From Candidatus Binatia bacterium (GTDB taxonomy: Bacteria > Desulfobacterota > Binatia > UBA12015): a DNA stretch of 44,777 bases. Position numbers and translations under genes: made by a program. The notes under the pieces were generated by a model. The model saw nothing but the letters and a program-made list of their open reading frames with translations. It ran no database searches and was not told the DNA's origin. Where the stretch lies: contig JAQWRY010000043.1 of assembly GCA_029243485.1 (NCBI GenBank), positions 1-44,777 of the forward strand. Reading direction: 5' to 3'. How positions within the stretch are numbered: position 1 is the stretch's first letter; each line of letters opens with the position of its first letter. Of this stretch, positions 1 through 11,806 are shown piece by piece.

Positions 1-1764
1 CCAGTGGAATCGCCGATCCCGGCCGCCGTCGTGCAAGCCACCTCCGAGCTGCCTCGTCTCGATCGACTGTCGATCGAGGGCGCCGAAGAGTCGGACCAAT
101 CGGCGCGACGTGGTGCTCTCGCGCACAGCCTCGGGCAACTCCTCGATGCGCAGCGGCTGCGCTGAAGCGATCCAGCGAAGATCCGCCAGGTTGGAGCCGA
201 GGCCGGTCGCCGCCAGAAGCGGCGTCGGGTCCGCCAAAATCCAGGTCACGCCCCGACTCGGCGAGATCAGCCTGCTGACGAAGTCGTACGTGTCGCGCGG
301 CGTGAGGACGTCGATCGAACGAAGGTCGCGAATCCCCATCGCACTCGACACGAGCGGCGGGGCCAACTCGACGGGTCCCGAGAAGCGCCCCGGGCGCTCC
401 TCTGCGAGACGCTGTAGCTCGACCGTCCAGGGCGCGGGGGCATAGACGTCCACCCGCTCGGCCCAGGTACGCGGCACGAGCCACAACATCTCCGCCGTGA
501 CGAGCACGAGCCCGAGGAGCGTTGCCGGAAACGGAAGCGAGTCCAGTCCCCGCGCCACGAGGAGCGCCAGAGCCAGATAGAGCGGAAAGCAGTATTTGAC
601 GTAGTTGATCGAGCCGAAGATCGGCACGTCGCCGAGGGGCACCGGGAGCGCGCCATGGATCCGCAGGACTTCGACGACCACGGTCAGAGCGAGCGCCCGG
701 GTGAGCCAGGACCGCCGTGTGTGCCAGAACCCCAAAGCCGCCCCCACGATGACCGTGAGCCCGGCGTAGGGCAGCCCCCGGGACGTGCCCTCCGCGGGCG
801 GCGTGGCGCCCCCGGTTGGGACGTACTGCAGCTCCTTCGCGAGACTGCCACCGAGACTCGAGAGAGATCCGACCGGCAGCGTCCATTGAGACTGGGTCGT
901 GCGTCCCGCGCGGACGAGCCCACTCGCTTGGCCGTACGTTTCCGCGAACGGCACGAGTGCGATCGCCGCAATCCCGGCGCCGAGTGCAACGCCACACACC
1001 CAGCCGCCGATCTGGCGGTAGAGCGGCATCGCGTCCGGGTCCGCTCCCTCTTCAGCAGCAGCGCTCGACCGGTCCGCGGCATCGGCGAGAAGCCACGACA
1101 AGCCGAACACCCCGGCCATGATCGCACTCTGCGGTTTCACTCCGAGGAGCCCGGCACTCACCGCAAGCGCGATCCAGGCGATGCCTCGATCGCCGTTGCG
1201 GCGAAGCGCCAACGCGGCCCAGAGCGTCGCGGGCACGAAGACATCCGTGTTGAGGGGATGATGCTCGATCCACTCCACGGTCTGCCCCGACAGCATCAAC
1301 GCGACGGCGGCCGCGAGCGCGCTCGCGAAACGGATCCCCAGTTCCCGCGCGAGCCCGAACGTGAAGAACCCGAGCAAGAAGACGCGGAGGAGCCACGCGA
1401 AGTCCTGCATGCCGGACGAAGGGAAGAGGTTCACGAGGAACTGCAGCGGCGACAACGCGCCCATGTTCGGATTGCCGAGAAGCGGGATCCCGAGCCCTTC
1501 GGCGTCGTTCCACAACGGGGCCTGCCCGGCCGCAAGGCCGCGGTGCACCAGATAGGGAGCCGGCTCGTCCACCCAGGTGGCCCCCTCGAGGTCGCGCACC
1601 GGGGCGGCGACGTCGGGCGGCCCGGCGACTCCGACCGGCCCGGTCGGGAGCGCTCCGGGCAACCAAGCCGCGCTGGAGAAGGTTCGCCCGCCGAACAGAA
1701 CGGAGGGAAACGCCGCGCACAGAAGCGCGGCGAGGAGCCCCGCCGCAGCGAGCCGGCCTACCAC
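1..1764 (-). CDS. YfhO-like polytopic membrane protein, C-terminus cut by window edge
   Basis: The frame is open from a GTG at 1764 to the left edge (588 codons visible). The product begins with a hydrophobic signal-anchor segment. A loop follows with the pattern PLWNDAEGLGIPLLGNPNMG at about residues 82-101, which resembles the 'PLWNP..G.G.P.L.NPQ' loop of bacterial YfhO / GT-C membrane proteins. Further on there are several hydrophobic segments and a stretch LPVPLGDVPIFGSINYVKY near residue 375. The gene overlaps the stop of the upstream KAS III gene by 7 nt, so the two are probably translationally coupled. Family knowledge: YfhO-type proteins are linked to glycosylation of cell-wall polymers or lipids; the exact reaction here is unknown. 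The end lies outside the window. Confidence is good for a real GT-C-like membrane gene and moderate for the family name. Confidence 0.75.
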   Translation of the reverse strand, partial: MVGRLAAAGLLAALLCAAFPSVLFGGRTFSSAAWLPGALPTGPVGVAGPPDVAAPVRDLEGATWVDEPAPYLVHRGLAAGQAPLWNDAEGLGIPLLGNPNMGALSPLQFLVNLFPSSGMQDFAWLLRVFLLGFFTFGLARELGIRFASALAAAVALMLSGQTVEWIEHHPLNTDVFVPATLWAALALRRNGDRGIAWIALAVSAGLLGVKPQSAIMAGVFGLSWLLADAADRSSAAAEEGADPDAMPLYRQIGGWVCGVALGAGIAAIALVPFAETYGQASGLVRAGRTTQSQWTLPVGSLSSLGGSLAKELQYVPTGGATPPAEGTSRGLPYAGLTVIVGAALGFWHTRRSWLTRALALTVVVEVLRIHGALPVPLGDVPIFGSINYVKYCFPLYLALALLVARGLDSLPFPATLLGLVLVTAEMLWLVPRTWAERVDVYAPAPWTVELQRLAEERPGRFSGPVELAPPLVSSAMGIRDLRSIDVLTPRDTYDFVSRLISPSRGVTWILADPTPLLAATGLGSNLADLRWIASAQPLRIEELPEAVRESTTSRRLVRLFGALDRQSIETRQLGGGLHDGGRDRRFHW

Positions 1765-2744
1765 CGCGCCACGAGGGCGCCGGCCGTCATGCCGCCGCCG
1801 ACCGCGTTCACCACGAGCACGTCGCCCGTCTTCAGCTTTCCGGCTCGGTGCGCCTCTTCCAGGGCAATCGGAATGGACGCGGCCGACGTGTTCCCACACC
1901 GGTCGAGGTTGATCCCGACGCGATCCGGCGAGATCTTCAACTGCGAGATCATCATCCGGATGATGCGCACGTTCGCCTGGTGCGGGACGAGAAGCTGGAC
2001 GTCTTCGGGGCGAAGTCCGGCCAGATCGAGCACCTCCCGGGTCAGCGCCACCAACTGCTCTACGGCGGCACGAAACACATCCTGTCCCTTCATCCGCATC
2101 CAGGGATCCTCGCCGCCCGGCGGAAGATCTTCGGGGCGCCGGGCGCCCGAACGAACGTAGAGAATCGGCCAGAGATCACCGAGCGCCCGCAACCGCGCGA
2201 CCAGGATCCCACTGCCGCCCTCCCCGGACTGCTCGTCCGCGACGAGGACGACGGCTCCGGCCCCGTCACCGAAGAGCGGACTCGTCATGCGATCGGTTGG
2301 TTCACAAAGCGCACTCAACCGATCGGCGCCGACCACGAGAACGCGCTGGTGATCCCCCGCTCGGATTCCCTGATCTGCGACGGTGACCGCGTAGGGAAAG
2401 CCGGCGCACGCGGCCGCGACGTCGAATGCCGGCGAGGTCCCGATCCCGAGACGCTCGTGCAGAAGACAAGCGAGGGACGGGAAGAGATAGGGGCCCGATG
2501 TCGTAGCCACTACGATCGCATCGACATCCTTCGGGGCGACGCTCGCCTGGTCCAGCGCGGCGCGCGCGGCGGCCGCCGCCAGGTCCACGAGCGAGTCACC
2601 GTCGGCAAGAATCCGCCGCTCTCGAACGCCGGTCCTGCCCTCGATCCAACCCGACTCGACCCCGAGTCGGGCTTCGACGGCGTCGTTACCGACGACCGTT
2701 TCGGGAAGTGCCGCCCCCACCCCCACGATCCGCGACCGGAGCAC
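1758..2744 (-). CDS. 3-oxoacyl-ACP synthase III (KAS III, FabH-like)
   Basis: The product of 328 aa matches the FabH/thiolase fold. The active-site Cys lies in DVAAACAGF, the catalytic His in VPHQANVRI and the Asn in RCGNTSAAS, so the Cys-His-Asn triad is intact. The family condenses an acyl-CoA or acyl-ACP with malonyl-ACP in the cytoplasm, either to start fatty-acid synthesis or to make specialised acyl chains. Nothing here shows the acyl preference, and no other fab genes are adjacent. An in-frame ATG at 2780 would add 12 residues, but it lies in the stem-loop at 2768-2795. The GTG at 2744 puts VLRSRIVGVGAALPE at the N-terminus as in homologues. The stop overlaps the YfhO-like gene. Confidence 0.85.
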   Translation of the reverse strand: MLRSRIVGVGAALPETVVGNDAVEARLGVESGWIEGRTGVRERRILADGDSLVDLAAAAARAALDQASVAPKDVDAIVVATTSGPYLFPSLACLLHERLGIGTSPAFDVAAACAGFPYAVTVADQGIRAGDHQRVLVVGADRLSALCEPTDRMTSPLFGDGAGAVVLVADEQSGEGGSGILVARLRALGDLWPILYVRSGARRPEDLPPGGEDPWMRMKGQDVFRAAVEQLVALTREVLDLAGLRPEDVQLLVPHQANVRIIRMMISQLKISPDRVGINLDRCGNTSAASIPIALEEAHRAGKLKTGDVLVVNAVGGGMTAGALVARW

Positions 2745-2767
2745 CCGGCATCCATACCGCACTCTTC

Positions 2768-2795
2768 GGAAGGCCGCCATTTGGCGGGGCCTTCC
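2768..2795 (-). terminator. Stem-loop between the CsgG-like gene and the KAS III gene
   Basis: An inverted repeat of 12 bp (7 bp, a 2-nt bulge, then 5 bp) closes on a two-base loop just after the stop of the upstream minus-strand gene. No T-tract follows, so it could be a weak terminator or an mRNA-processing hairpin rather than a classical rho-independent terminator. Confidence 0.4.
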
Positions 2796-2801
2796 GGGCG
2801 A

Positions 2802-5336
2802 TCAAAAGCGGGGCGTGCTCGCCGGGGTCGGGGTGGGCGTGCCGGTCGGGCGACCGGCCGGAGTCGGGCTCGGCGTCGGAACGGGCGACGCATCCGCCGA
2901 GAGGGCCGAGGAGCACGTCCCGCCGAGACACGAACCCGCACAGCAATCCTGGTCGCTCGAACACGCGCCGCTCGGCGCGGCACAGCAACGCCCGAGGACG
3001 CAGCCCGCACCGGCCCCGCAACACTCGCTCGCATCGGAGCACGCCGACTGGAGCGGAAGACAGCACGCCCCGTCGCAGCCCACGTTGGTCCCACAGCAGA
3101 TCGAGTCGTCGGCGCAGTTGTCGCCCAGCGGCGCGCAGCAGATGTTCTGGCCTGAGGTCGGGGTCTCTTCACAGTCGCTGCCCGGACAGCACTCGAACAC
3201 GGCATCGCACGTATTCCCCTGCGGCACGCAGAGGGGAGGCGTAGGAGCGGGCGTCGGTGTCGGCGGGGCACTGCCCTCACACGTCCCGCTCGCACAGCGG
3301 CCGGTACAGCACTCGGAGTCGTTCGCGCACGACAGACCATCGGGGAGACAGCAGCTACCCGCAGCACACGCCGCGCCGTCGTCGCAGCAATCGCTCGCGC
3401 CGGTGCACGAGACGCCCAGCGGCGCGCAGCACTGTTGGCCTCGACAGGCGTTGTCACTCCCGCAGCAATTCCCATCGATCTGGCAGGGCATCGTCAGACC
3501 GAGGCAACAGCGTGTGCCGCTGCCCGCCGGCGTGACGTCGCACTCGCGTGGGATGTCCTGGCAACATTCCGCCGGCGCGGTGCAACTCGCCCCGGTGCCC
3601 CCGCAGGTCGGTGGCGGGGTCGGGGTCGGCGGAGCCGAGGAAACGCTCAACGTCGCCGACTCGCTCGCGGTGTCGTTCGGCGGCCCACGGGAGGCCGTCG
3701 CGGTGAACGTCACGTCGACGGTCTGTCCTCCATCACTGAGAGTGGTCTGCCAACGGAACGTCCCCGTCGCCGGGTTGCCTCTCGAGGTGTCGAACGTCGC
3801 CGCACTGGGCGCACCCGACTGCGTGAGCGTGACCGGCGAGCCTTCCGGGTCCTGCCCTTCGATGTTCAGAACGATCAGGTCGCCGGCACTCACCGAGCGA
3901 TCCTGGACGCCGCTGAGCGTTGGCGGTCGAACGGGGTCGTTGTTGCCCCCTCCGCCCCCGCCGCCACCACCACCCGCGGCTGCCGCTGCGCCGCCGATCA
4001 CGACGACGAGCCCACCGCCGACGAGTGCGGCGGTCATGGGCGACATCCCGAGGATCGTCGTCTCCTCTTCCTCCACCGGCTCCGGCGGGGTGCCCGTGGT
4101 CGTAGCGGCCTTCTTCGATGCGGACGCCCCACCCGCGACGGCTCCAGCCGTGGCGGCGGTCGTGGTCGATGCGTCGGTCGTCCGGGCGACGACTTCGGGC
4201 TGCGCGTCGGTCGTGGGCGCTGCCGCAGGTGCCTCGGTCGTCACGCTCGGAGTCGCGATCGGTGCCGCGGCCACCACCGCTGGAGCCGCAACCGGCTCGA
4301 GCTCGGACTGAACCACGGTCGCAACCGCCGTCAGCGACATCGACGAAGCCGGCAGGGTCGCGAGGCGGAGACGCGCCAACCGAAAGGACGAATCGGCGCG
4401 CAACGCCTTTTCGTACTCGCGTCGGGCGTCGTCGAACTGGCCGCGGTCTTCGTGGTCGAGCCCACGACCGAACGCGAGTGCGGCATCGAGGCTCTCGGTG
4501 TGCACGGCCTGCATCCGCGCGGCCGAAGCCTTGGAAAGGGAACTCACCGGAGAACCGAGGCGATTCGAAATCCCAACGGCGGTGTCACGGATCGCGGCGT
4601 AGAAGCGATCGAGCGGGGCGAGGAACGAGCCCGACTCGAGCCGGAGGCCGGATTCCGTGTCGATCAACGCGGAGTCCACCTCGAGCGTCATCGGGTCCGT
4701 CGACGTATCGACGTGCGCACCGACGACGACCAGTCCAGCCCCGAGGAGCGCACCCACACGTCGCGCGGTCTTGGTATCGCTTCCTGCCTGGTCGGAGACC
4801 TCGTCGAGAAACGCTTCGACGCGGCCACGCTCGACGACTCGCGAGTTCGGAACACCACCCAGGCTGTCGGTCAGCATCGCCGCGATGGCCTTGCCGAGCG
4901 GCTCGTACTCCGGCGCGCCGACATTCCGAAAGGGCAGAACGGCGAGCACGTCGCCGGAAACGCGCGCCCCACGCCCCGCGGAGACGGCCGCTTTCGCACC
5001 CCGCCGGTTCGCCTCGCGAACCACGAGGGTCCGTAGTCGAGCGATATCGCCCGCAAGGGCGGTGTCCGGGGATGTCTTGATGAACTGCCCCCAGGCATCC
5101 GCCGCCCGAGCGGGTTGATCGAGTCGCAATTGGGCGAGCCCCAACAAAAGCGCGTCGTTCGGATCGCCGCCGGGCGCCCCCTGGAGGGCCGAAACCACGC
5201 CCCGGTAGTCTCCCGCGCCGTAGCGCTCATAACCGGTTTCGTAGGCAGCCGAGAGCGCGGCGAACGAAACGGAGGGCGGAGCCACGATGAGAGCAACGAG
5301 AAACAGCGCCAGGGATCGCGAAATGATGGACCTCAT
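2802..5336 (-). CDS. Exported CsgG/FlgO-like TPR protein with Ig-like domain and duplicated Cys-rich blocks
   Basis: The product is 844 aa. Residues 1-26 look like a signal peptide. Residues 30-110 hold TPR-like helices. Residues 128-260 resemble the CsgG/FlgO-type fold (VLAVLPFRNVG, then SRVVERGRVEAFLDE). Residues 280-325 are another TPR. An Ala/Thr-rich linker follows to about 420, then a hydrophobic segment (434-454) ending in ten glycines. Residues 470-560 look like a putative Ig/cadherin-type domain. The C-terminus has two blocks (578-686 and 703-808), each with 24 cysteines in the same order, set between Pro-Thr linkers. CsgG-like proteins act in the envelope, often at the outer membrane; the role of the Cys-rich tail is unknown. 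The gene is divergent from the TolC operon. The domain combination is unusual and I recognise no named orthologue. Confidence 0.75.
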   Translation of the reverse strand: MRSIISRSLALFLVALIVAPPSVSFAALSAAYETGYERYGAGDYRGVVSALQGAPGGDPNDALLLGLAQLRLDQPARAADAWGQFIKTSPDTALAGDIARLRTLVVREANRRGAKAAVSAGRGARVSGDVLAVLPFRNVGAPEYEPLGKAIAAMLTDSLGGVPNSRVVERGRVEAFLDEVSDQAGSDTKTARRVGALLGAGLVVVGAHVDTSTDPMTLEVDSALIDTESGLRLESGSFLAPLDRFYAAIRDTAVGISNRLGSPVSSLSKASAARMQAVHTESLDAALAFGRGLDHEDRGQFDDARREYEKALRADSSFRLARLRLATLPASSMSLTAVATVVQSELEPVAAPAVVAAAPIATPSVTTEAPAAAPTTDAQPEVVARTTDASTTTAATAGAVAGGASASKKAATTTGTPPEPVEEEETTILGMSPMTAALVGGGLVVVIGGAAAAAGGGGGGGGGGNNDPVRPPTLSGVQDRSVSAGDLIVLNIEGQDPEGSPVTLTQSGAPSAATFDTSRGNPATGTFRWQTTLSDGGQTVDVTFTATASRGPPNDTASESATLSVSSAPPTPTPPPTCGGTGASCTAPAECCQDIPRECDVTPAGSGTRCCLGLTMPCQIDGNCCGSDNACRGQQCCAPLGVSCTGASDCCDDGAACAAGSCCLPDGLSCANDSECCTGRCASGTCEGSAPPTPTPAPTPPLCVPQGNTCDAVFECCPGSDCEETPTSGQNICCAPLGDNCADDSICCGTNVGCDGACCLPLQSACSDASECCGAGAGCVLGRCCAAPSGACSSDQDCCAGSCLGGTCSSALSADASPVPTPSPTPAGRPTGTPTPTPASTPRF
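2913..3605 (-). repeat. Two copies of a 24-cysteine block, each of four CC-type repeats
   Basis: Within the CsgG-like gene, block A covers nt 3279-3605 and block B nt 2913-3230. Each has Cys groups of 7, 6, 6 and 5, in units of the type C-x5-C-CC-xn-C-xn-CC. The first unit has Cys spacings 7, 6, 1, 7, 11 in block A and 7, 6, 1, 5, 11 in block B. A Pro-Thr linker separates the blocks. The match points to duplication of a whole four-repeat block. Confidence 0.8.
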
Positions 5337-5434
5337 TTGGATTCGCGACCCTTACTCGGCCTGCCCCCAGCGGGCAAGCGCGCGGCCCGGGGCTGGCGCC
5401 AGAGCCGGACCCTGTAATAAGCCGAGAGTAGCCG
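5337..5434. promoter_or_regulatory. Divergent intergenic region between the CsgG-like gene and the TolC operon
   Basis: These 98 bp must hold the promoters for both directions. A plus-strand TGTAATAAG at about 5413-5421 could be an extended -10 for the efflux operon, but no good -35 box is seen. GC-rich short inverted repeats lie at 5370-5400. No operator was recognised. Confidence 0.35.
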
Positions 5435-6958
5435 ATGCAGCCAACGACCCAGCGACGGAGCCCCGGAGCCCACTTCAGGCGGCAGACCCTGGCCGTCCTC
5501 TTATGGACGGCCCTGCTCCTACCGGGCGCCGCCCGGGCTGCCCAGGTCGACCTCGCCGGATGCGTGAAGCTCGCCCTCGCCCGAAACCCCCAGATCCTCG
5601 ATGCAATCGATGCAGAATTGTCGGCGCGGCTCACGCTCGAGGTGGCCGAAGTCGAGTACGATCTTCAGGTAACTCCCACGATCGACGGCGGCCTGCAGGG
5701 CTCAAACACGACCAACCAGAACTTCGAGCTGCTGCTGCGGCGGAAGTTCCTCCCGACCGGAACGCAAGTCGACGTCAAAGGCAGCTCTCGCGTCTTCTCC
5801 ACCGTACCGCAGGTCTCGGTCCCCTACTTCAGCGAGGCCCGGGTGACCGTGGCCCAACCACTTCTTCAAGGCTGGACCGCAATCGAGAACCGATCGGGCC
5901 TCGACGAGGCCGAGCGACGCCTCGGCTCGAGCGAGCACGCGATCGAAGTCGCACGCGAAGAAACCGTGTTCCAGATCGTGCGCGCCTACTACGAGGTCGT
6001 CCGGGCCGAACAACTCCTCGAAGTCGCGCGGCGTTCGCGCACGCGCGTCCGGGCACTGAAGGACGCCGCCGAGGCTCGCCTCGAACTCGGCAAGGTCTCG
6101 AAGATGGACGTCTACCGAGCCGACATCCAAGAAGCGCGCGTCCTCAACACACTCGCCGACCAGGAGGCTCGTCGCGCGGGCGCACTCGACAACTTGAAGC
6201 TCCTCCTCGGGCTCGACCCGCGGGTCGACCTCCAGATCGACCCACGCCTCCAAGGTCCGACCGTGACCGAACTGAAGGGCGTGAACCTCGAAGACCAGGC
6301 CGACAACCAACGCCCCGAAGTTCGCGAGGCCCGGGCCGAGGTTGCCGACTCGGAACGCAAACTCGTTCTCGCGAAGTACGGGCTCTGGCCGGCACTCGAC
6401 CTCGTCGGGCACTACGCACAGCAGGGCTTCGGTGAGTCGTTCGGAGACTCGTTCAACCTCGACCGCACCGAATGGAACGTCGGCTTCCGCTCATCGGTCC
6501 CGCTCGACCGAACCATCCAGAAAGCTGCGCTGACGGAAGCCGAGATTGCGCTGCGCAGCCGCGAACGGAACTACCGCCAACTCCGCGGCCAGGTGGTGGG
6601 TCAGGTGCGACAGGCAGTGCGACAGCTCGACCGCGCTCGCGCCGAGTCGGAGCTCGCCGCGCGAATTGCGACACAGGCCTCCCAGCAAGAAGAACTCGCG
6701 CGATACCGCTACGAGAAGGGCCTCACGGACAACTTCGACCTCGTCCAGGCGGAGGAACAGCTCACCGAGGCCCGCGCGGGTCAGATCCTCGCCACGATCG
6801 ACCAGGCGGTCGCCGCCGGCGCCGTGCGCCGGGCCACGGGCACGCTCACCGCCGCCTTCCTGGATCTACCGCCTGCGGCGGCTCCGGCGGTTCGTGACAC
6901 CGGGCCGCCACCGGGCGGCGCCTGCGGCAAGGAAACCGAATGCGCTCTCGGCGAGTGA
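5435..6958 (+). CDS. TolC-family outer-membrane efflux protein
   Basis: The product of 507 aa starts with a basic N-region and a hydrophobic core ending in GAARAAQ, a Sec signal peptide. The mature part has the TolC/OEP pattern: LAGCVKLALARNPQI near the N-terminus, two long amphipathic helical hairpins rich in Glu, Arg and Ala, and a repeat of the family signature (DLVQAEEQLTEARAGQILA) near the C-terminus. TolC proteins form trimeric outer-membrane channels with a periplasmic tunnel. It is the first gene of a four-gene operon with a membrane-fusion protein, an ATPase and a permease, so it probably serves as the exit duct of a tripartite ABC exporter. It overlaps the next gene by 19 nt. Confidence 0.88.
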   Translation: MQPTTQRRSPGAHFRRQTLAVLLWTALLLPGAARAAQVDLAGCVKLALARNPQILDAIDAELSARLTLEVAEVEYDLQVTPTIDGGLQGSNTTNQNFELLLRRKFLPTGTQVDVKGSSRVFSTVPQVSVPYFSEARVTVAQPLLQGWTAIENRSGLDEAERRLGSSEHAIEVAREETVFQIVRAYYEVVRAEQLLEVARRSRTRVRALKDAAEARLELGKVSKMDVYRADIQEARVLNTLADQEARRAGALDNLKLLLGLDPRVDLQIDPRLQGPTVTELKGVNLEDQADNQRPEVREARAEVADSERKLVLAKYGLWPALDLVGHYAQQGFGESFGDSFNLDRTEWNVGFRSSVPLDRTIQKAALTEAEIALRSRERNYRQLRGQVVGQVRQAVRQLDRARAESELAARIATQASQQEELARYRYEKGLTDNFDLVQAEEQLTEARAGQILATIDQAVAAGAVRRATGTLTAAFLDLPPAAAPAVRDTGPPPGGACGKETECALGE

Positions 6959-8406
6959 CCGCGTCCCTGTTCGGGGTCGGCGCCATCGCACTGGTCGCCG
7001 CCGTCAGCGGGTGGGACGACGCCCCACGAGGAGACGGGGCCCCACCCACCGCGCGCGCGCTGCGCGGCGACGTCACGCAGAGCCTGGTCGAGCCCGGCAC
7101 TCTTCGCGCCGCCCGCTCGGTCACGTTGGCATCCGAGATCCGCAGCAACCGCGCCAAGATCGTGTCCCTCCTCCCCGACGGAACCTGGGTCGAGCCGGGC
7201 GACACCGTGCTGCGTTTCGATCCGACCCCGTTCGAGGAGGAGCGTTTGAAGGCGCTCGCAGACGTGCGAGATGCCGAAGCGGCCACTGTCCGCGCGGAGC
7301 AGGAGCGAAAGCTCCAGATCGCGAAGGCCGAGGAGTCGCTCGAGAGCACGCGCCACGCGGTCCGACTCGCCGAGCTGAATCTCGAAGCCTTCGAGAAGGG
7401 AACCGGCGCGCTGAACGTTCGCGAAGCGGAAGTCCGGGCGGCGGAAATGGGCGCGGAACTCTCTCGCGCGCGCGAAGACCTGATGGACATGGAACGCATG
7501 CTCCGCCAGGGATTCGTGAGCGCCGAAGAAGTCTCCCGTCAACGCGGTCGGGTCGAGAACCTCGGCCGTCAAGACGGGCTTCAGGGCGATCGCCTTCGTA
7601 CCGCCCGCGAGATCCACTACCCGCGAGACCTCGAACGGTCGCGGAACCAACTCGAGGAGGCTGAGGACGCGGTCGCCCGCGCCGAGGGCGTCCTGTACTA
7701 CACACGCGAGTACTACCGCGCCGTTCGAGAAAGCGCGCAACGCAAAGAGGAGTCGACGCGAACGGCCCTCGGTCGGGTCGACGAGCAACTCGCGAAAACG
7801 CAGATCACGACCCCGATCGCGGGCTTCCTGGTCTTGCAGGACATCCCACTGGAGAACGGCAAGCGGCGTCCGCAGGTCGGCGATTCGGTGTGGAGCGGCG
7901 TGCCGATTGCCACCGTGCCCGACCTCTCGAAGATGCAGCTCACCGCCTTCGTGCGCGAGGTCGATCTCCATCGAGTCTCCGTGGGGATGGCCGCCGACGT
8001 GGCCATCGAGGCCTACCCCGACCTCCGGCTCGAGGGTCGAATCGGCCACATCGGCAGTCTCGCCGAGAACGTCGTGGACTCCCCATGGAAGTTCTTCCCG
8101 GTCACCCTGACGCTCGCGACCACCGACGACCGACTACGCCCGGGCATGTCGGCACGCGTCGAATTCGAGCTCGCGCGATCCGAAGATGTAGTCCGGGTTC
8201 CGGCGGACGCCATTTTCACGCGCGGGGACAGACGGGTCGTCTACATCCGCCACGGGAGCTCGGTCGCCGAGCACGAGGTCTCGCTCGGACTCGCGAACGA
8301 GACCCACGTCGAGATCCGCGCCGGGATCGATGAAGGAGACGAGCTTCTCCTGGAATCGCCGGGCGGCTCTGTTGCATTCCAACCGCTTCCGGAGCCGCGA
8401 GCGTGA
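6940..8406 (+). CDS. Periplasmic adaptor (membrane-fusion protein) of a MacA/HlyD-like efflux pump
   Basis: The product of 488 aa has an N-terminal membrane anchor (residues 7-24), then a lipoyl/barrel half (VTLASEIRSNRAKIV ... WVEPGDTVLRFD). A long coiled-coil hairpin rich in Glu and Arg spans about residues 95-270, and the second barrel half follows (QITTPIAGFLVLQ). The C-terminal beta domain includes MTAFVRE-like LTAFVREVDLHRVSVGM and VVRVPADAIF. This order is that of RND/HlyD adaptors. The protein should link the inner-membrane permease to the TolC-like channel encoded just upstream. The gene overlaps its neighbours at both ends (19 nt and 4 nt), which indicates coupled translation. The substrate cannot be told from sequence. 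Confidence 0.85.
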   Translation: MRSRRVTASLFGVGAIALVAAVSGWDDAPRGDGAPPTARALRGDVTQSLVEPGTLRAARSVTLASEIRSNRAKIVSLLPDGTWVEPGDTVLRFDPTPFEEERLKALADVRDAEAATVRAEQERKLQIAKAEESLESTRHAVRLAELNLEAFEKGTGALNVREAEVRAAEMGAELSRAREDLMDMERMLRQGFVSAEEVSRQRGRVENLGRQDGLQGDRLRTAREIHYPRDLERSRNQLEEAEDAVARAEGVLYYTREYYRAVRESAQRKEESTRTALGRVDEQLAKTQITTPIAGFLVLQDIPLENGKRRPQVGDSVWSGVPIATVPDLSKMQLTAFVREVDLHRVSVGMAADVAIEAYPDLRLEGRIGHIGSLAENVVDSPWKFFPVTLTLATTDDRLRPGMSARVEFELARSEDVVRVPADAIFTRGDRRVVYIRHGSSVAEHEVSLGLANETHVEIRAGIDEGDELLLESPGGSVAFQPLPEPRA

Positions 8407-9097
8407 GCGATGCCGCACCCGAGGGCCGCCGAGCACCTTGCGCGGCCCTTAAAGGAATCGAGCGCCACTACCCACGTCGCGAAGGCACCGTCACCGCGCT
8501 CGAAGCCATCGACCTCGAAATCCAGCACGGCGAGATGCTGGCCCTGACGGGGCCTTCAGGCTCCGGCAAGTCGACGTTGCTCCACGTGCTCGGTCTTCTC
8601 GATACGCCCACCGCCGGCCGGTACCGCCTCGACGGCGAGGACGTCTCGACGCTCGAAGACGACGCTCGCGCGGCACGCCGCAACCGCAAAATCGGCTTCG
8701 TCTTCCAGGCCTTCCACCTGGTGCCGCATCTCACCCTCGAAGAAAACGTCGCGCTTCCCCTCGTGTACGGCGGCGTCGACGAGGACGGTCGCAGCCCGCG
8801 CGCTGCGACGGCGCTCCGCCAGGTCGGATTGGACCATCGTCTCACGCATCGGCCCGACGAGCTCTCCGGAGGGGAGCAGCAACGCGCCGCAATTGCGCGA
8901 GCCCTCATCTACGAACCGCCGCTTCTGCTCGCCACGAGCCCACGGGGAACCTCGACGAGGCGTCCGCCGAGGGCGTCCTCGAACTCATGCGCACCATCCA
9001 CTCCTTAGGCACGACGGTCGTGCTCGTTACGCACAACCCCCGGGTCGCGGCGATGGCCGAGCGAACGCTGGAAATCCGTCATGGCCGCTTCGTCTGA
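8403..9097 (+). CDS. MacB/LolD-type ABC transporter ATPase, interrupted by a 1-nt frameshift at Walker B
   Basis: Translation starts at a GTG (8403) overlapping the adaptor stop. Walker A is GPSGSGKS (residues 50-57), the Q-loop lies in GFVFQAFHLVPHLTL, and the signature is LSGGEQQRAAIARAL (154 on). After LLLA (nt 8933) one base is missing: where a GAC codon for the Walker B aspartate is expected, the frame slips and stops at 9008. In the shifted frame, EPTGNLDEASAEGVLELMR and the H-loop VLVTHNPRVAAMAE continue to a TGA at 9095-9097. Adding one base restores a normal 231-aa ATPase. The permease start at 9081 overlaps the true end. It is either a recent inactivating mutation or a sequence/assembly error; the intact neighbours favour an error or a very recent event. 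Confidence 0.8.
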
Positions 9098-10298
9098 GCC
9101 CGGCCGAATCTCCGCGCGTGACGTCGCCCGCGCCGCGCTTGGCGGCGTTCGGCTCTATCGCCTCCGATCCGCCCTCACGATCGCGAGTTTCGCCGCCGGG
9201 ACGGCAGCCGCGGTCGCGCTGCTGTCGATCACGGGCGGCGCTCGCCTGGAGCTGCTCGAGCGAATCCAGCGCCTTGGCGCGAATCTGGTGAGCGTGCATG
9301 CCGTCGGAGAAGCGGGGCGCGAGGCTCCGCCCGCCCTGACCATCGCCGACGCCACCGCGATCGCACAGGCGCTGCCATTCGCTCGTGACGTCGCGCCGGT
9401 GCGCGTCGTGCCCGCAAGCGTCCTCCTTCCCGATGAACAGCTGACGGTCCAAGTGGTGGGCACGACACAAGACTACTTCGCCCTACGCGGACTGTCGTTC
9501 GCCCGCGGACGCCCGTTCTCGGTCGAAGAGAGCGATGGAGGAGCCGCGGTCTGCGTCGCGGGAGACGAGACGGCCCGCCGACTTGCGCGCGAGGGCCCGG
9601 TCTACGGCTCGCACGTGAAGGTCGGCGAGCGATGGTGCCGGGTCGTCGGAATCCTGGAGCCAGAGGCCTCGACCACGGGCGAAGACACCGATCGCCGCCT
9701 CTACGTCCCGATCCTCACGACGCTACGCCACGACCTTTCCGAGCGACAAGGACTCGGCGAGATCCTGCTCCGAATCTCGGACGACGTCGATCCCGAACGC
9801 GCCGCGCAGGTCGTAAAGCGCGCGCTGCTGCGACGACACGACGGCGTCGAGCACTTCGCCATCGAGACCGCGCAGGCCCTCCTGCGTCAACAACGGAGCA
9901 CCCGGGGCTTACTGGATACGCTTCTCGCCGCCGTGGCGGTCCTGGCCCTCTGCCTCGGCGGCATCGCCCTCGGGAGCCAGGCGTGGCAAAGCGTTTCCCT
10001 GCGGCGGCGCGAGATCGCGATCCGCCGGGCGATCGGTGCGAGGCGGGAAGAAATCCTCGTGCAGTTTCTCCTCGAGGGGATCCTGCTCGCGTCCGCCGGG
10101 GCCGCGGTCGGTGTCGGCCTCGGCGTCGCCGGCGCGGCCCTCGCCGCCACCCTCGGCGAGTGGCCGTGGGTCGTGCCGGCCAGTAGACTCGCAAGCACAC
10201 TGGCGATCATCCTGTTCCTCGGCGTCGCAGCCACGATTTATCCGGCCTACCGGGCCGCGACGCTCGACCCGGTCGAGGCGCTCCGCAGCGAGCGCTGA
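9081..10298 (+). CDS. MacB/FtsX-type ABC transporter permease
   Basis: The product of 405 aa has the usual layout: one N-terminal membrane segment (LTIASFAAGTAAAVALLSI), a periplasmic MacB core domain (about residues 50-260), then three C-terminal membrane segments. Between these are the FtsX hallmarks LRRREIAIRRAIGARREEILVQFLLEG and the end motif YPAYRAATLDPVEALRSE. It should pair with the ATPase just upstream, whose last codons it overlaps by 17 nt, and with the adaptor and TolC-like channel of the same operon. MacB-type pumps move substrates from the periplasm outward without transporting through the membrane domain. Cargo is unknown. Confidence 0.88.
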   Translation: MAASSEPGRISARDVARAALGGVRLYRLRSALTIASFAAGTAAAVALLSITGGARLELLERIQRLGANLVSVHAVGEAGREAPPALTIADATAIAQALPFARDVAPVRVVPASVLLPDEQLTVQVVGTTQDYFALRGLSFARGRPFSVEESDGGAAVCVAGDETARRLAREGPVYGSHVKVGERWCRVVGILEPEASTTGEDTDRRLYVPILTTLRHDLSERQGLGEILLRISDDVDPERAAQVVKRALLRRHDGVEHFAIETAQALLRQQRSTRGLLDTLLAAVAVLALCLGGIALGSQAWQSVSLRRREIAIRRAIGARREEILVQFLLEGILLASAGAAVGVGLGVAGAALAATLGEWPWVVPASRLASTLAIILFLGVAATIYPAYRAATLDPVEALRSER

Positions 10299-10357: not shown

Positions 10358-11806
10358 GTGAGCCAACGCACCTTCGTGATCTTCGTCCTCGGCCTCTTGG
10401 GGATGCGATTCGCCACCCTGCCGCTCCTCCCCGCCCTCGACCCGAGCGAGGCCCGCTATGCCGTCGTCGCGCGCGACATGCTGCAAAGCGGCGACTTCGT
10501 CACGCCGATGATCTGGGCGAACGGGGAGTACACCCCGTTCTTCAGCAAGCCTCCTCTCCTCTTCTGGTTGCAGGCCGGGACGATGGCGGCCCTCGGCGTC
10601 ACCGAACTGGCGGCGAGACTCCCTCCCTTCCTCGCTTCGGTCTGCGTCCTGCTGGTGACGTGGTTCACGCTCCGGCGCTATGTGGCGTCGGAGGTACTGC
10701 GGGGCTCGCTCCTCGTTCTCACGTCGTCGCCCCTCTTCTTCCTGAGCGCGGGTATCGGACTCACCGACATGCTGCTCTGCCTGTCCGTCGGCGGCGCCCT
10801 CTTCTCCCACTATGCGTTCACGCGTGAGGACGACCCGGTGCGCGCGCGGCGGTGGAGTCTCGTGACGTTCGCTTTGCTGGGAATCGGCATGCTCACGAAG
10901 GGACCGATCGCGCTGGTCGAGTTCGGCCTGCCGGCGCTCGCCTGGAGTGCCTGGAACCGGCGTCTCGACGATCTCGCGAGGCAGGCGTGGTGGCCCGGCC
11001 TCCTCGTGTTTCTGCTCCTCTGGGTTCCCTGGTTCGCCCTGACGGAGCGAGCCAACGCCGGATTCCTCGAGTACTTCTTTGTCAACGAGAACTTCCTGCG
11101 CTTTTTCGCATCGGAGTACGGCGATCGGTACGGCGGGGGACACAAGTTTCCGCCCGGCGCTGCGATCGTGTTCTTCCTTCTGGCGTTCCTCCCGTGGCTC
11201 GTCCTACTGGCCTGGCACTTGCGGGCGCCCGACGCGCGACGGCTCGCGAAACAACGTCTCGGGCGCAGTGATCTCCAGTTCCTCGGGTTCGCGGTGGTCG
11301 GCAACATTCTGTTTTTGAGCTTCTCTCGACACATCCTCGGCACGTATGTTCTGCCGGTGCTGCCCGCGGCGGCGGTCCTGCTCGCCGCGATCTTCGCGAG
11401 CCTCGGCCTCAGCGCTGCGCGACAGGGACGAATCGCGGTCGGACTCGTCGTCGTCTACTCGCTCGCGATGATCCTCGGCATGCCTCTGATCGAGGGCGGA
11501 TGGTCCTCGCAAACAATTCTCGCGCGGGCCGAGGCCTTCCAGGCCGAGCGCGGCGCGGAAGGCCGGATCGTCTTCGTGGAGAAGCGACCGTTCTCGGCCC
11601 GCTTCTACGGCGGGCCGAATATCGACCAAATCCCCTGGGATGCCGGGAACGAGCACTACGAGTGGTACCTCGATCCGCCGAACGGCCACCTCATGATCCT
11701 CAGGCGCCATCACCCGGACATCGTCGACCCGTACGTCACCGACCGACTACGCCGGGTGGAGGAGATCGGCCGCTACACGATCTGGGAGCCGATCGAGCCG
11801 AACTAG
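10358..11806 (+). CDS. ArnT-like GT-C (GT39/GT83 type) glycosyltransferase
   Basis: The product of 482 aa is highly hydrophobic, with roughly ten or more membrane segments. The first periplasmic loop carries DPSEARYAVVARDML with the acidic DxxE pattern of ArnT/PMT enzymes. The loop NGEYTPFFSKPPLLFWLQ matches the 'y..KPPL.yWl' signature of ArnT-like proteins. These enzymes transfer a sugar from a polyprenyl-phosphate donor to lipid A or other envelope acceptors on the periplasmic side. It begins at a GTG 59 bp after the MacB-like gene and could be read from the same transcript. It converges on the GT39-like gene at 11814. Donor and acceptor are unknown. Confidence 0.82.
   Translation: MSQRTFVIFVLGLLGMRFATLPLLPALDPSEARYAVVARDMLQSGDFVTPMIWANGEYTPFFSKPPLLFWLQAGTMAALGVTELAARLPPFLASVCVLLVTWFTLRRYVASEVLRGSLLVLTSSPLFFLSAGIGLTDMLLCLSVGGALFSHYAFTREDDPVRARRWSLVTFALLGIGMLTKGPIALVEFGLPALAWSAWNRRLDDLARQAWWPGLLVFLLLWVPWFALTERANAGFLEYFFVNENFLRFFASEYGDRYGGGHKFPPGAAIVFFLLAFLPWLVLLAWHLRAPDARRLAKQRLGRSDLQFLGFAVVGNILFLSFSRHILGTYVLPVLPAAAVLLAAIFASLGLSAARQGRIAVGLVVVYSLAMILGMPLIEGGWSSQTILARAEAFQAERGAEGRIVFVEKRPFSARFYGGPNIDQIPWDAGNEHYEWYLDPPNGHLMILRRHHPDIVDPYVTDRLRRVEEIGRYTIWEPIEPN

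What the first reader, a model, noticed from the sequence alone, without database searches (positions are those of the whole stretch)
2913..3605. Two 24-cysteine blocks with matching 7-6-6-5 layout fused to a CsgG/FlgO-like protein
Each block has four CC-type units in the same order and nearly the same spacings. This indicates block duplication and probably a disulfide-rich rod or ligand-binding surface. I know of no described CsgG-like protein with such a tail, and the central poly-Gly membrane segment places it across or outside a membrane.
Basis: seen in the sequence. Interest (0 to 1): 0.6.

Follow-up and report, generated by a model that had tools for sequence, protein, structure and literature searches.

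The report
Bacterial envelope protein with knottin tail
A bacterial protein, probably of the cell envelope, ends in eight tiny disulfide-type "knottin" units, a fold best known from spider and cone-snail venoms but here more likely a tough rod or binding array, and strings of the same unit recur in other bacteria.

Summary
Gene 2802-5336 (minus) encodes 844 residues; all 48 cysteines lie in residues 578-808 and parse exactly as eight units C-x6-C-x5-CC-x(3-6)-C-x(3-10)-C, i.e. 6-6-6-6 per block, not 7-6-6-5. Units abut without linker inside a block; a Pro/Thr linker separates the blocks. Block duplication is supported. A same-genus relative keeps all 48 cysteines (tail dN/dS about 0.10).

Spacing, a unit profile against the PDB, and a confident model of one block (pLDDT 90.8) all point to inhibitor-cystine-knot (knottin) units. 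Net charge -21 and no lysine speak against a venom-like role. The N-terminal part is TPR plus a TolB-N-type domain; "CsgG/FlgO" holds only at superfamily level.

Knottin units occur in 30 of 192 genomes sampled from another class; 26 of 29 loci read there have three or more. Single bacterial knottins were published in 2013; ten searches showed me no paper on bacterial arrays. The TolB-N fusion was seen in two species of one genus only. Best reading: an exported protein displaying a protease-resistant, acidic knottin rod for binding or adhesion. Export, disulfides and function are inferred, not shown.

The parts
2802..5336 (-). whole gene, 844 aa, ATG start
   Evidence: ORF and translation; same-genus relative 70% identical over residues 2-844
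5259..5336 (-). signal peptide, residues 1-26 (cleavage site judged by eye)
   Evidence: hydrophobic stretch, Kyte-Doolittle up to 2.2 over 19 residues; no signal-peptide program was run
4302..5258 (-). residues 27-345: TPR-like helices, TolB-N-type alpha/beta domain, TPR
   Evidence: Pfam TPR_2 at residues 286-315, 27.4 bits against cut-off 27; model pLDDT 90.8, pTM 0.88
4500..4955 (-). TolB-N-like (CsgG superfamily) domain, about residues 128-279
   Evidence: TolB N-terminal domain Z 14.5, rmsd 2.2 over 124 residues; Pfam CsgG 15.0 bits, below cut-off 20.8
3945..4058 (-). hydrophobic Ala/Gly/Val segment and run of ten Gly, residues 427-464
   Evidence: Kyte-Doolittle up to 2.08; residues 426-464 are the most conserved of the regions compared with the relative, 92% identity, dN/dS 0.038
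3627..3944 (-). Ig/cadherin-like spacer, about residues 465-570 (weak evidence)
   Evidence: 32-38% identity to parts of three other proteins of the class that look exported by eye; PDB matches only at E 0.17 and worse, best protocadherin; no Pfam match there
3279..3605 (-). knottin block 1, units 1-4, residues 578-686
   Evidence: model pLDDT 90.8, pTM 0.72
3231..3278 (-). Pro/Thr-rich linker between blocks, residues 687-702
   Evidence: sequence
2913..3230 (-). knottin block 2, units 5-8, residues 703-808
   Evidence: 41% identical to block 1 with the cysteines counted; not modelled itself
2805..2912 (-). Pro/Thr/Ser-rich C-terminal end, residues 809-844
   Evidence: sequence

Best explanation
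An exported, envelope-attached modular protein. Well supported by computation: the tail is eight knottin (inhibitor-cystine-knot) units in two duplicated stacks of four, joined by a Pro/Thr hinge, on a module of TPR helices and a TolB-N-type domain. Inferred: the tail lies outside the cytoplasm, where each unit closes three disulfides of its own; because units abut with no linker, each stack is a short stiff rod; the acidic, protease-resistant surface of the eight units serves as a binding or adhesive display, with the TolB-N/TPR part as the periplasmic base that contacts other envelope proteins. The unit is of the kind used in tandem in many other bacterial proteins, and it was joined to this gene, as far as sampled, within one genus.
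For: Knottin: exact spacing in 8 of 8 units. A profile of 43 bacterial units (16 of them from this gene and its relative) against the PDB gives 28 sequences at E<=1, 26 of which I read as venom peptides by name, best E 0.0017. In the predicted block, stretches of 24-25 residues superpose on 1hvw (rmsd 0.8, TMt 0.81) and 5fzv (rmsd 0.6, TMt 0.74). No gap of 1 or 2 between any cysteines, so no CxC or CxxC metal motif. Conserved: 48 of 48 Cys, tail dN/dS 0.096. TolB-N module. Not toxin-like: net charge -21, 0 Lys, 1 aromatic in 231 residues. Rod: 6 of 7 junctions have no linker, against 5 of 247 in 35 other bacterial proteins. Lineage-bound fusion: 2 of 148 genomes of the class have the block profile, and the same-genus G003 relative stops before the hydrophobic segment and tail, with no knottin pattern in any frame of its locus. 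Related arrays: 30 of 192 genomes; 26 of the 29 loci read there have 3 or more units, up to 21.
Against: All structure is predicted; I could not read coordinates, so disulfide pairing was not checked. No Foldseek row for the block reaches E 0.001 (best 0.036, a Dickkopf domain; the cited knottins 0.5 each); VIA-align Z is at most 3.4, with rmsd 2.3 for 5fzv there. A stop-transfer reading of the hydrophobic segment after a cleaved signal peptide would put the tail in the cytoplasm, against disulfides. No ligand, expression or phenotype evidence exists. Only block 1 was modelled, so the shape of the whole tail is not known.
Confidence: 0.6

Rival explanations
1. A purely mechanical stalk: the two stiff stacks and Pro/Thr hinges only hold another part away from the membrane and bind nothing themselves.
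For: Units abut without linkers and lie beside a spacer domain and Pro/Thr-rich linkers.
Against: The tail is C-terminal with nothing but a 36-residue Pro/Thr-rich end beyond it, so it has no cargo to hold out. Non-Cys positions of the tail are conserved against the relative (130 of 183 identical, dN/dS 0.195).
Confidence: 0.2
2. An array of protease inhibitors in the manner of squash-type knottins, protecting the cell surface from its own or foreign proteases.
For: Knottin inhibitors are a classic use of the fold (established knowledge); the trypsin inhibitor EETI-II is among the matches (TMt about 0.6; Z 2.1).
Against: No Lys or Arg in the first loop of any of the eight units, and in one of eight in the relative, which speaks against trypsin-like targets; the EETI-II match is weaker than several venom peptides.
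Confidence: 0.1
3. A venom-like toxin array that is cut into single knottins acting on ion channels of prey or competitors.
For: Closest solved structures by profile are venom peptides.
Against: Net charge -21, no Lys, one aromatic residue; units abut, leaving no evident cutting site inside a block; fusion to a TolB-N/TPR module.
Confidence: 0.05
4. A reduced, cytoplasmic metal-binding cysteine array, with the hydrophobic segment acting as a stop-transfer anchor.
For: The signal-peptide plus hydrophobic-segment order would by default place the tail inside.
Against: No CxC or CxxC spacing anywhere and no His in the tail; strict knottin spacing in 8 of 8 units.
Confidence: 0.05

Closest known systems
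Bacterial ICK domains HoHP-ICKD (Haliangium ochraceum) and KrICK (Ktedonobacter racemifer), PMC3694633 (passages read)
   Same: Inhibitor-cystine-knot domain in a bacterium; in HoHP a C-terminal domain fused to an exported protein
   Different: One ICK domain each, on a subtilisin-type protease or as a free peptide; here eight units in two stacks on a TolB-N/TPR protein
Venom knottins (omega-atracotoxin, omega-conotoxins, scytotoxins)
   Same: Six-Cys order matched by profile and, in the model, rmsd 0.6-0.8 over 24-25 residues
   Different: Animal, single units; here acidic, tandem, part of a larger bacterial protein
Pfam Conotoxin_I2 (PF17557)
   Same: Profile positions 1-26 align to residues 663-688, i.e. 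unit 4; the profile also matches 17 of 35 other bacterial knottin proteins at E<=0.001
   Different: This protein is below the cut-off (17.2 against 27 bits); that family's framework has eight cysteines per peptide (recalled)
Tandem knottin proteins such as L009 (17 units) and L010 (16 units), deltaproteobacterial MAGs
   Same: Same unit and spacing, many copies in one protein
   Different: No TPR, CsgG or TolB match at E<=0.001 in 35 such proteins scanned, some of them cut at locus ends; 169 of 247 linkers are 3-6 residues, 5 are zero
TolB N-terminal domain / CsgG superfamily (TolB, FlgT, PelC, GNA1162, LpoB)
   Same: Predicted fold of about residues 128-279
   Different: TPR helices follow instead of TolB's beta-propeller; no long pore hairpins as in CsgG are evident in the model's element list
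Dickkopf / colipase fold
   Same: Cys-rich domains of related kind; best Foldseek row by E is the Dkk4 N-terminal region (E 0.036)
   Different: Poor superposition (rmsd 8.5 over 63 columns); no Pfam Dickkopf_N row up to E 10

Membership tests
Knottin / inhibitor cystine knot | six Cys in the order C..C..CC..C..C with knottin spacing | tested here: met
   8 of 8 units
Knottin / inhibitor cystine knot | knottin fold | tested here: met
   In prediction only, block 1 only: pLDDT 90.8; TMt 0.81 and 0.74 on 1hvw and 5fzv, though E is 0.5 for each and no row reaches 0.001; VIA Z up to 3.4
Knottin / inhibitor cystine knot | C1-C4, C2-C5, C3-C6 disulfides with the knot | not testable with these tools
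   coordinates of the model were not readable; needs mass spectrometry or a structure
Pfam Conotoxin_I2 | score above the curated cut-off | tested here: not met
   17.2 bits against 27; 19.7 in the relative
CsgG (curli secretion pore) | score above the Pfam cut-off | tested here: not met
   15.0 bits against 20.8
CsgG (curli secretion pore) | inserted beta-hairpins that build the pore | tested here: inconclusive
   model lists strands 101-107, 174-185, 191-200, 206-215; CsgG only at Foldseek E 0.007 with rmsd 17
FlgO | profile match | tested here: inconclusive
   no FlgO row among Pfam matches up to E 10; HMMER filters drop most weak matches
TolB | TolB N-terminal domain fold | tested here: met
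   in prediction: Z 14.5, rmsd 2.2 over 124
TolB | C-terminal beta-propeller | tested here: not met
   no propeller family among Pfam rows; the domain is followed by TPR helices
Metallothionein-like cysteine array | CxC / CxxC clusters | tested here: not met
   no gap of 1 or 2 between cysteines
Dickkopf_N | profile match | tested here: inconclusive
   not among Pfam rows up to E 10, but a Dkk4 structure is the top Foldseek row

The most novel reading that the evidence does not exclude
Bacteria of more than one lineage use tandem knottins as a general surface repeat scaffold, overlooked because profile libraries label it as conotoxin. This gene is a distinct variant in which units are packed edge to edge, duplicated as a block, and mounted on a TolB-N/TPR module, making a knottin rod coupled to the cell-envelope machinery.
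Probability: 0.45. Interest if true: 0.7.

Novelty: new variant of a known kind. Interest (0 to 1): 0.5.

Why it matters
Knottins are known mainly as single animal and plant peptides (general knowledge). Rods made of abutting knottins in bacteria would be a very stable natural repeat scaffold, would extend the 2013 report of single bacterial ICK domains (PMC3694633), and would show that Pfam's Conotoxin_I2 label on bacterial proteins misleads. The same-genus relatives with and without the tail offer a natural comparison.

Tried and rejected
Metal-binding array: rejected on spacing. Mobile origin: no match of the tail in 72,556 plasmid or 50,697 phage records; in viral contigs 37 stretches matched a pattern and none encoded a relative; no PHROG match up to E 0.1. 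RNA features in window 1-9000: none at Rfam gathering scores. PDB sequence search with the whole tail gave only granulin-2 at E 0.08. A weak third match in the window's own genome (E 0.37) has no knottin pattern in six frames. Profile A2 in a phylum sample found only the window's genome, 1 of 395; profile A3 likewise, 1 of 395 at E<=1e-5.

Rows dropped: profile A3 used 43 of 49 units at hand (8 of 8 of the window, 8 of 8 of the relative, 16 of 17 of L009, 11 of 16 of L010). The first block alignment (25 rows) was set aside because overlapping windows misregistered it, and replaced by 11 non-overlapping rows. L042 was dropped from the N-terminal alignment. Unit counts for loci are lower bounds where the frame runs off the locus; a looser pattern was used there than; and these loci were chosen by a knottin profile, so they say nothing of proteins that lack it. 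The lipobox flag is a crude pattern that can match anywhere and was not used as evidence.

Papers: ten searches. I saw no paper on tandem bacterial knottins, but only listed rows were seen (for instance 12 of 435, 12 of 58), and the library lacks most subscription journals. Only PMC3694633 was opened, and only passages of it were read. All others were seen as search listings.

Full report
What is there. The ORF 2802-5336 on the minus strand encodes 844 residues. All 48 cysteines lie in residues 578-808, window 2913-3605. They parse without remainder into eight units C-x6-C-x5-CC-x(3-6)-C-x(3-10)-C, four per block. The pattern occurs nowhere else in the six frames of the window, and composition alone does not give it: of 20,000 shuffles 70 contain one unit and none two.

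Duplication. Block 1 and block 2 share the order of loop lengths: the long 10-residue loop in unit 1 of each, the short 3-residue loop in unit 4 of each. Outside cysteines 20 of 82 positions agree, against a shuffle mean of 8.5. Matching units in order is the best of 24 orders by identity, narrowly, and by BLOSUM62 more clearly, in both species. I take block duplication as likely. The shuffles do not remove the common knottin consensus; the order test does, but its best possible rank is only 1 of 24, and the two species are not independent.

A real and constrained gene. All 48 cysteines are kept although half of their codons differ; tail dN/dS is about 0.10 with near-saturated dS. Another same-genus genome (G003) has a 378-residue relative that stops before the hydrophobic segment and tail, and its 4.1-kb locus holds no knottin pattern in six frames. 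G002, 87% complete, had no match to the full protein. Among 58 relatives the full protein matched 4 genomes: its own, G001, G003 and, over residues 131-335 only, G018. Of 148 genomes of the class, 2 matched the block profile; of 395 sampled from the phylum, 1, the window's own.

What the units are. A profile of 43 bacterial units (16 from this gene and its relative, 27 from L009 and L010) searched against PDB sequences gave 28 distinct sequences at E<=1. I read 26 of the 28 names as venom peptides; the others are liver-expressed antimicrobial peptide 2 and 'MK1-3.6.10'. The best E is only 0.0017, with 24 positions to score. AlphaFold2 on block 1 with 11 rows gave pLDDT 90.8 and pTM 0.72. Foldseek placed 24-25 residue stretches on 1hvw (0.8 A, TMt 0.81) and 5fzv (0.6 A, TMt 0.74), with E 0.5 for each; no row reached E 0.001, and the top row by E was the Dickkopf-4 N-terminal region (0.036) with poor superposition. 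VIA-align gave Z up to 3.4. Spacing, profile and model agree on the inhibitor cystine knot, though no single score is decisive. Disulfide pairing was not checked.

What the rest is. Residues 27-345 were modelled with pLDDT 90.8, pTM 0.88. The alpha/beta part has the TolB N-terminal fold: Z 14.5, rmsd 2.2 over 124 residues, then FlgT 12.7 and PelC 11.7. Helices flank it on both sides; Pfam TPR_2 passes its cut-off on the C-terminal side. Matches in three other proteins of the class run through this domain towards the TPR part (L007, L033, L043). NCBIfam's peptide-modification cyclase model matches residues 185-337 far below its cut-off (32.8 against 400 bits). Residues 427-464 are a hydrophobic Ala/Gly/Val stretch and ten glycines; 426-464 is the most conserved region against the relative (92%). 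Residues 465-570 resemble, at 32-38% identity, parts of three proteins of the class that look exported by eye (L080, L081, L084); calling them Ig/cadherin-like rests on weak matches (E 0.17).

Wider family. Arrays of the same unit were found in two MAGs named as deltaproteobacteria, L009 with 17 and L010 with 16 units, and then in 30 of 192 genomes sampled from the class of L009's genome at E<=1e-5. That class is another one than the window's, because it holds more than the 148 genomes of the window's class; the tool does not name it. One locus was read from each of the other 29 genomes: 26 of 29 have three or more units, up to 21. In the window's own class 5 of 148 genomes match at E<=1e-4, 3 of them at 1e-5. 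Outside the genus these are G005 and G111 with one unit each, and G039 with a one-unit and a five-unit protein. Across 35 such proteins, 17 match Pfam Conotoxin_I2 and none matches a TPR, TolB or CsgG family at E<=0.001; some are cut at locus ends. One of the 35 is a subtilase with a PA domain, probably L049, whose single unit is C-terminal; this is the type published for Haliangium ochraceum (PMC3694633, passages read). The window's tail stands out by packing: 6 of 7 junctions without a linker, against 5 of 247 elsewhere. The other units are acidic on average too (-1.8 per unit against -2.5).

How it probably works. The tail is acidic (net -21), with no lysine and one aromatic residue, unlike the mostly basic channel-blocking knottins of venoms (general knowledge). 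Without linkers each block should be a stiff stack. The most likely role is a tough, protease-resistant display rod for binding or adhesion, based in the envelope through the TolB-N/TPR part. The export, the disulfides and the rod are inferences. The main difficulty is topology: if residues 427-457 act as a stop-transfer helix, the tail would be inside. I favour a tail outside because 48 conserved cysteines with knottin spacing make sense only where disulfides form, and because the neighbouring domain type occurs in proteins that look exported.

Novelty. Single bacterial knottins are in print since 2013. In ten searches of the paper library I saw no report of tandem bacterial knottins nor of this fusion, with the limits given under Tried and rejected. 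I rate it a new variant of a known kind.

Noticed in passing
window 5435-10298 (+): Divergently transcribed TolC-like outer-membrane efflux protein, HlyD-type fusion protein and MacB-type permease (Pfam) with an ABC ATPase between them (by eye), starting about 100 bp from the start of the knottin gene. Whether they work together is unknown.
   Followed up: partly
window 8403-9008 (+): The ABC ATPase ORF ends early, after what looks like an intact ABC signature motif, and its last stretch no longer looks like an ATPase (by eye); possibly a frameshift or sequence error.
   Followed up: no
window 1758-2780 (-): KAS III (FabH-like, Pfam) gene begins 21 bp after the stop of the knottin gene on the same strand; a closely similar ORF follows the gene in the same-genus relative L005.
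   Followed up: partly
L053 1-2820 (+), and L049-L077 generally: Proteins with up to 21 knottin units in the class of L009's genome; Pfam labels 17 of 35 scanned knottin proteins Conotoxin_I2.
   Followed up: partly
L006 2632-4137: Downstream of the tail-less relative in G003 lies a different reading frame that by eye encodes an exported protein with beta-helix-like and Asp-rich repeats, so the gene neighbourhood differs.
   Followed up: no
window 10358-11806 (+): PMT-type mannosyltransferase, which could in principle glycosylate Thr/Pro-rich linkers such as those of the knottin protein.
   Followed up: no
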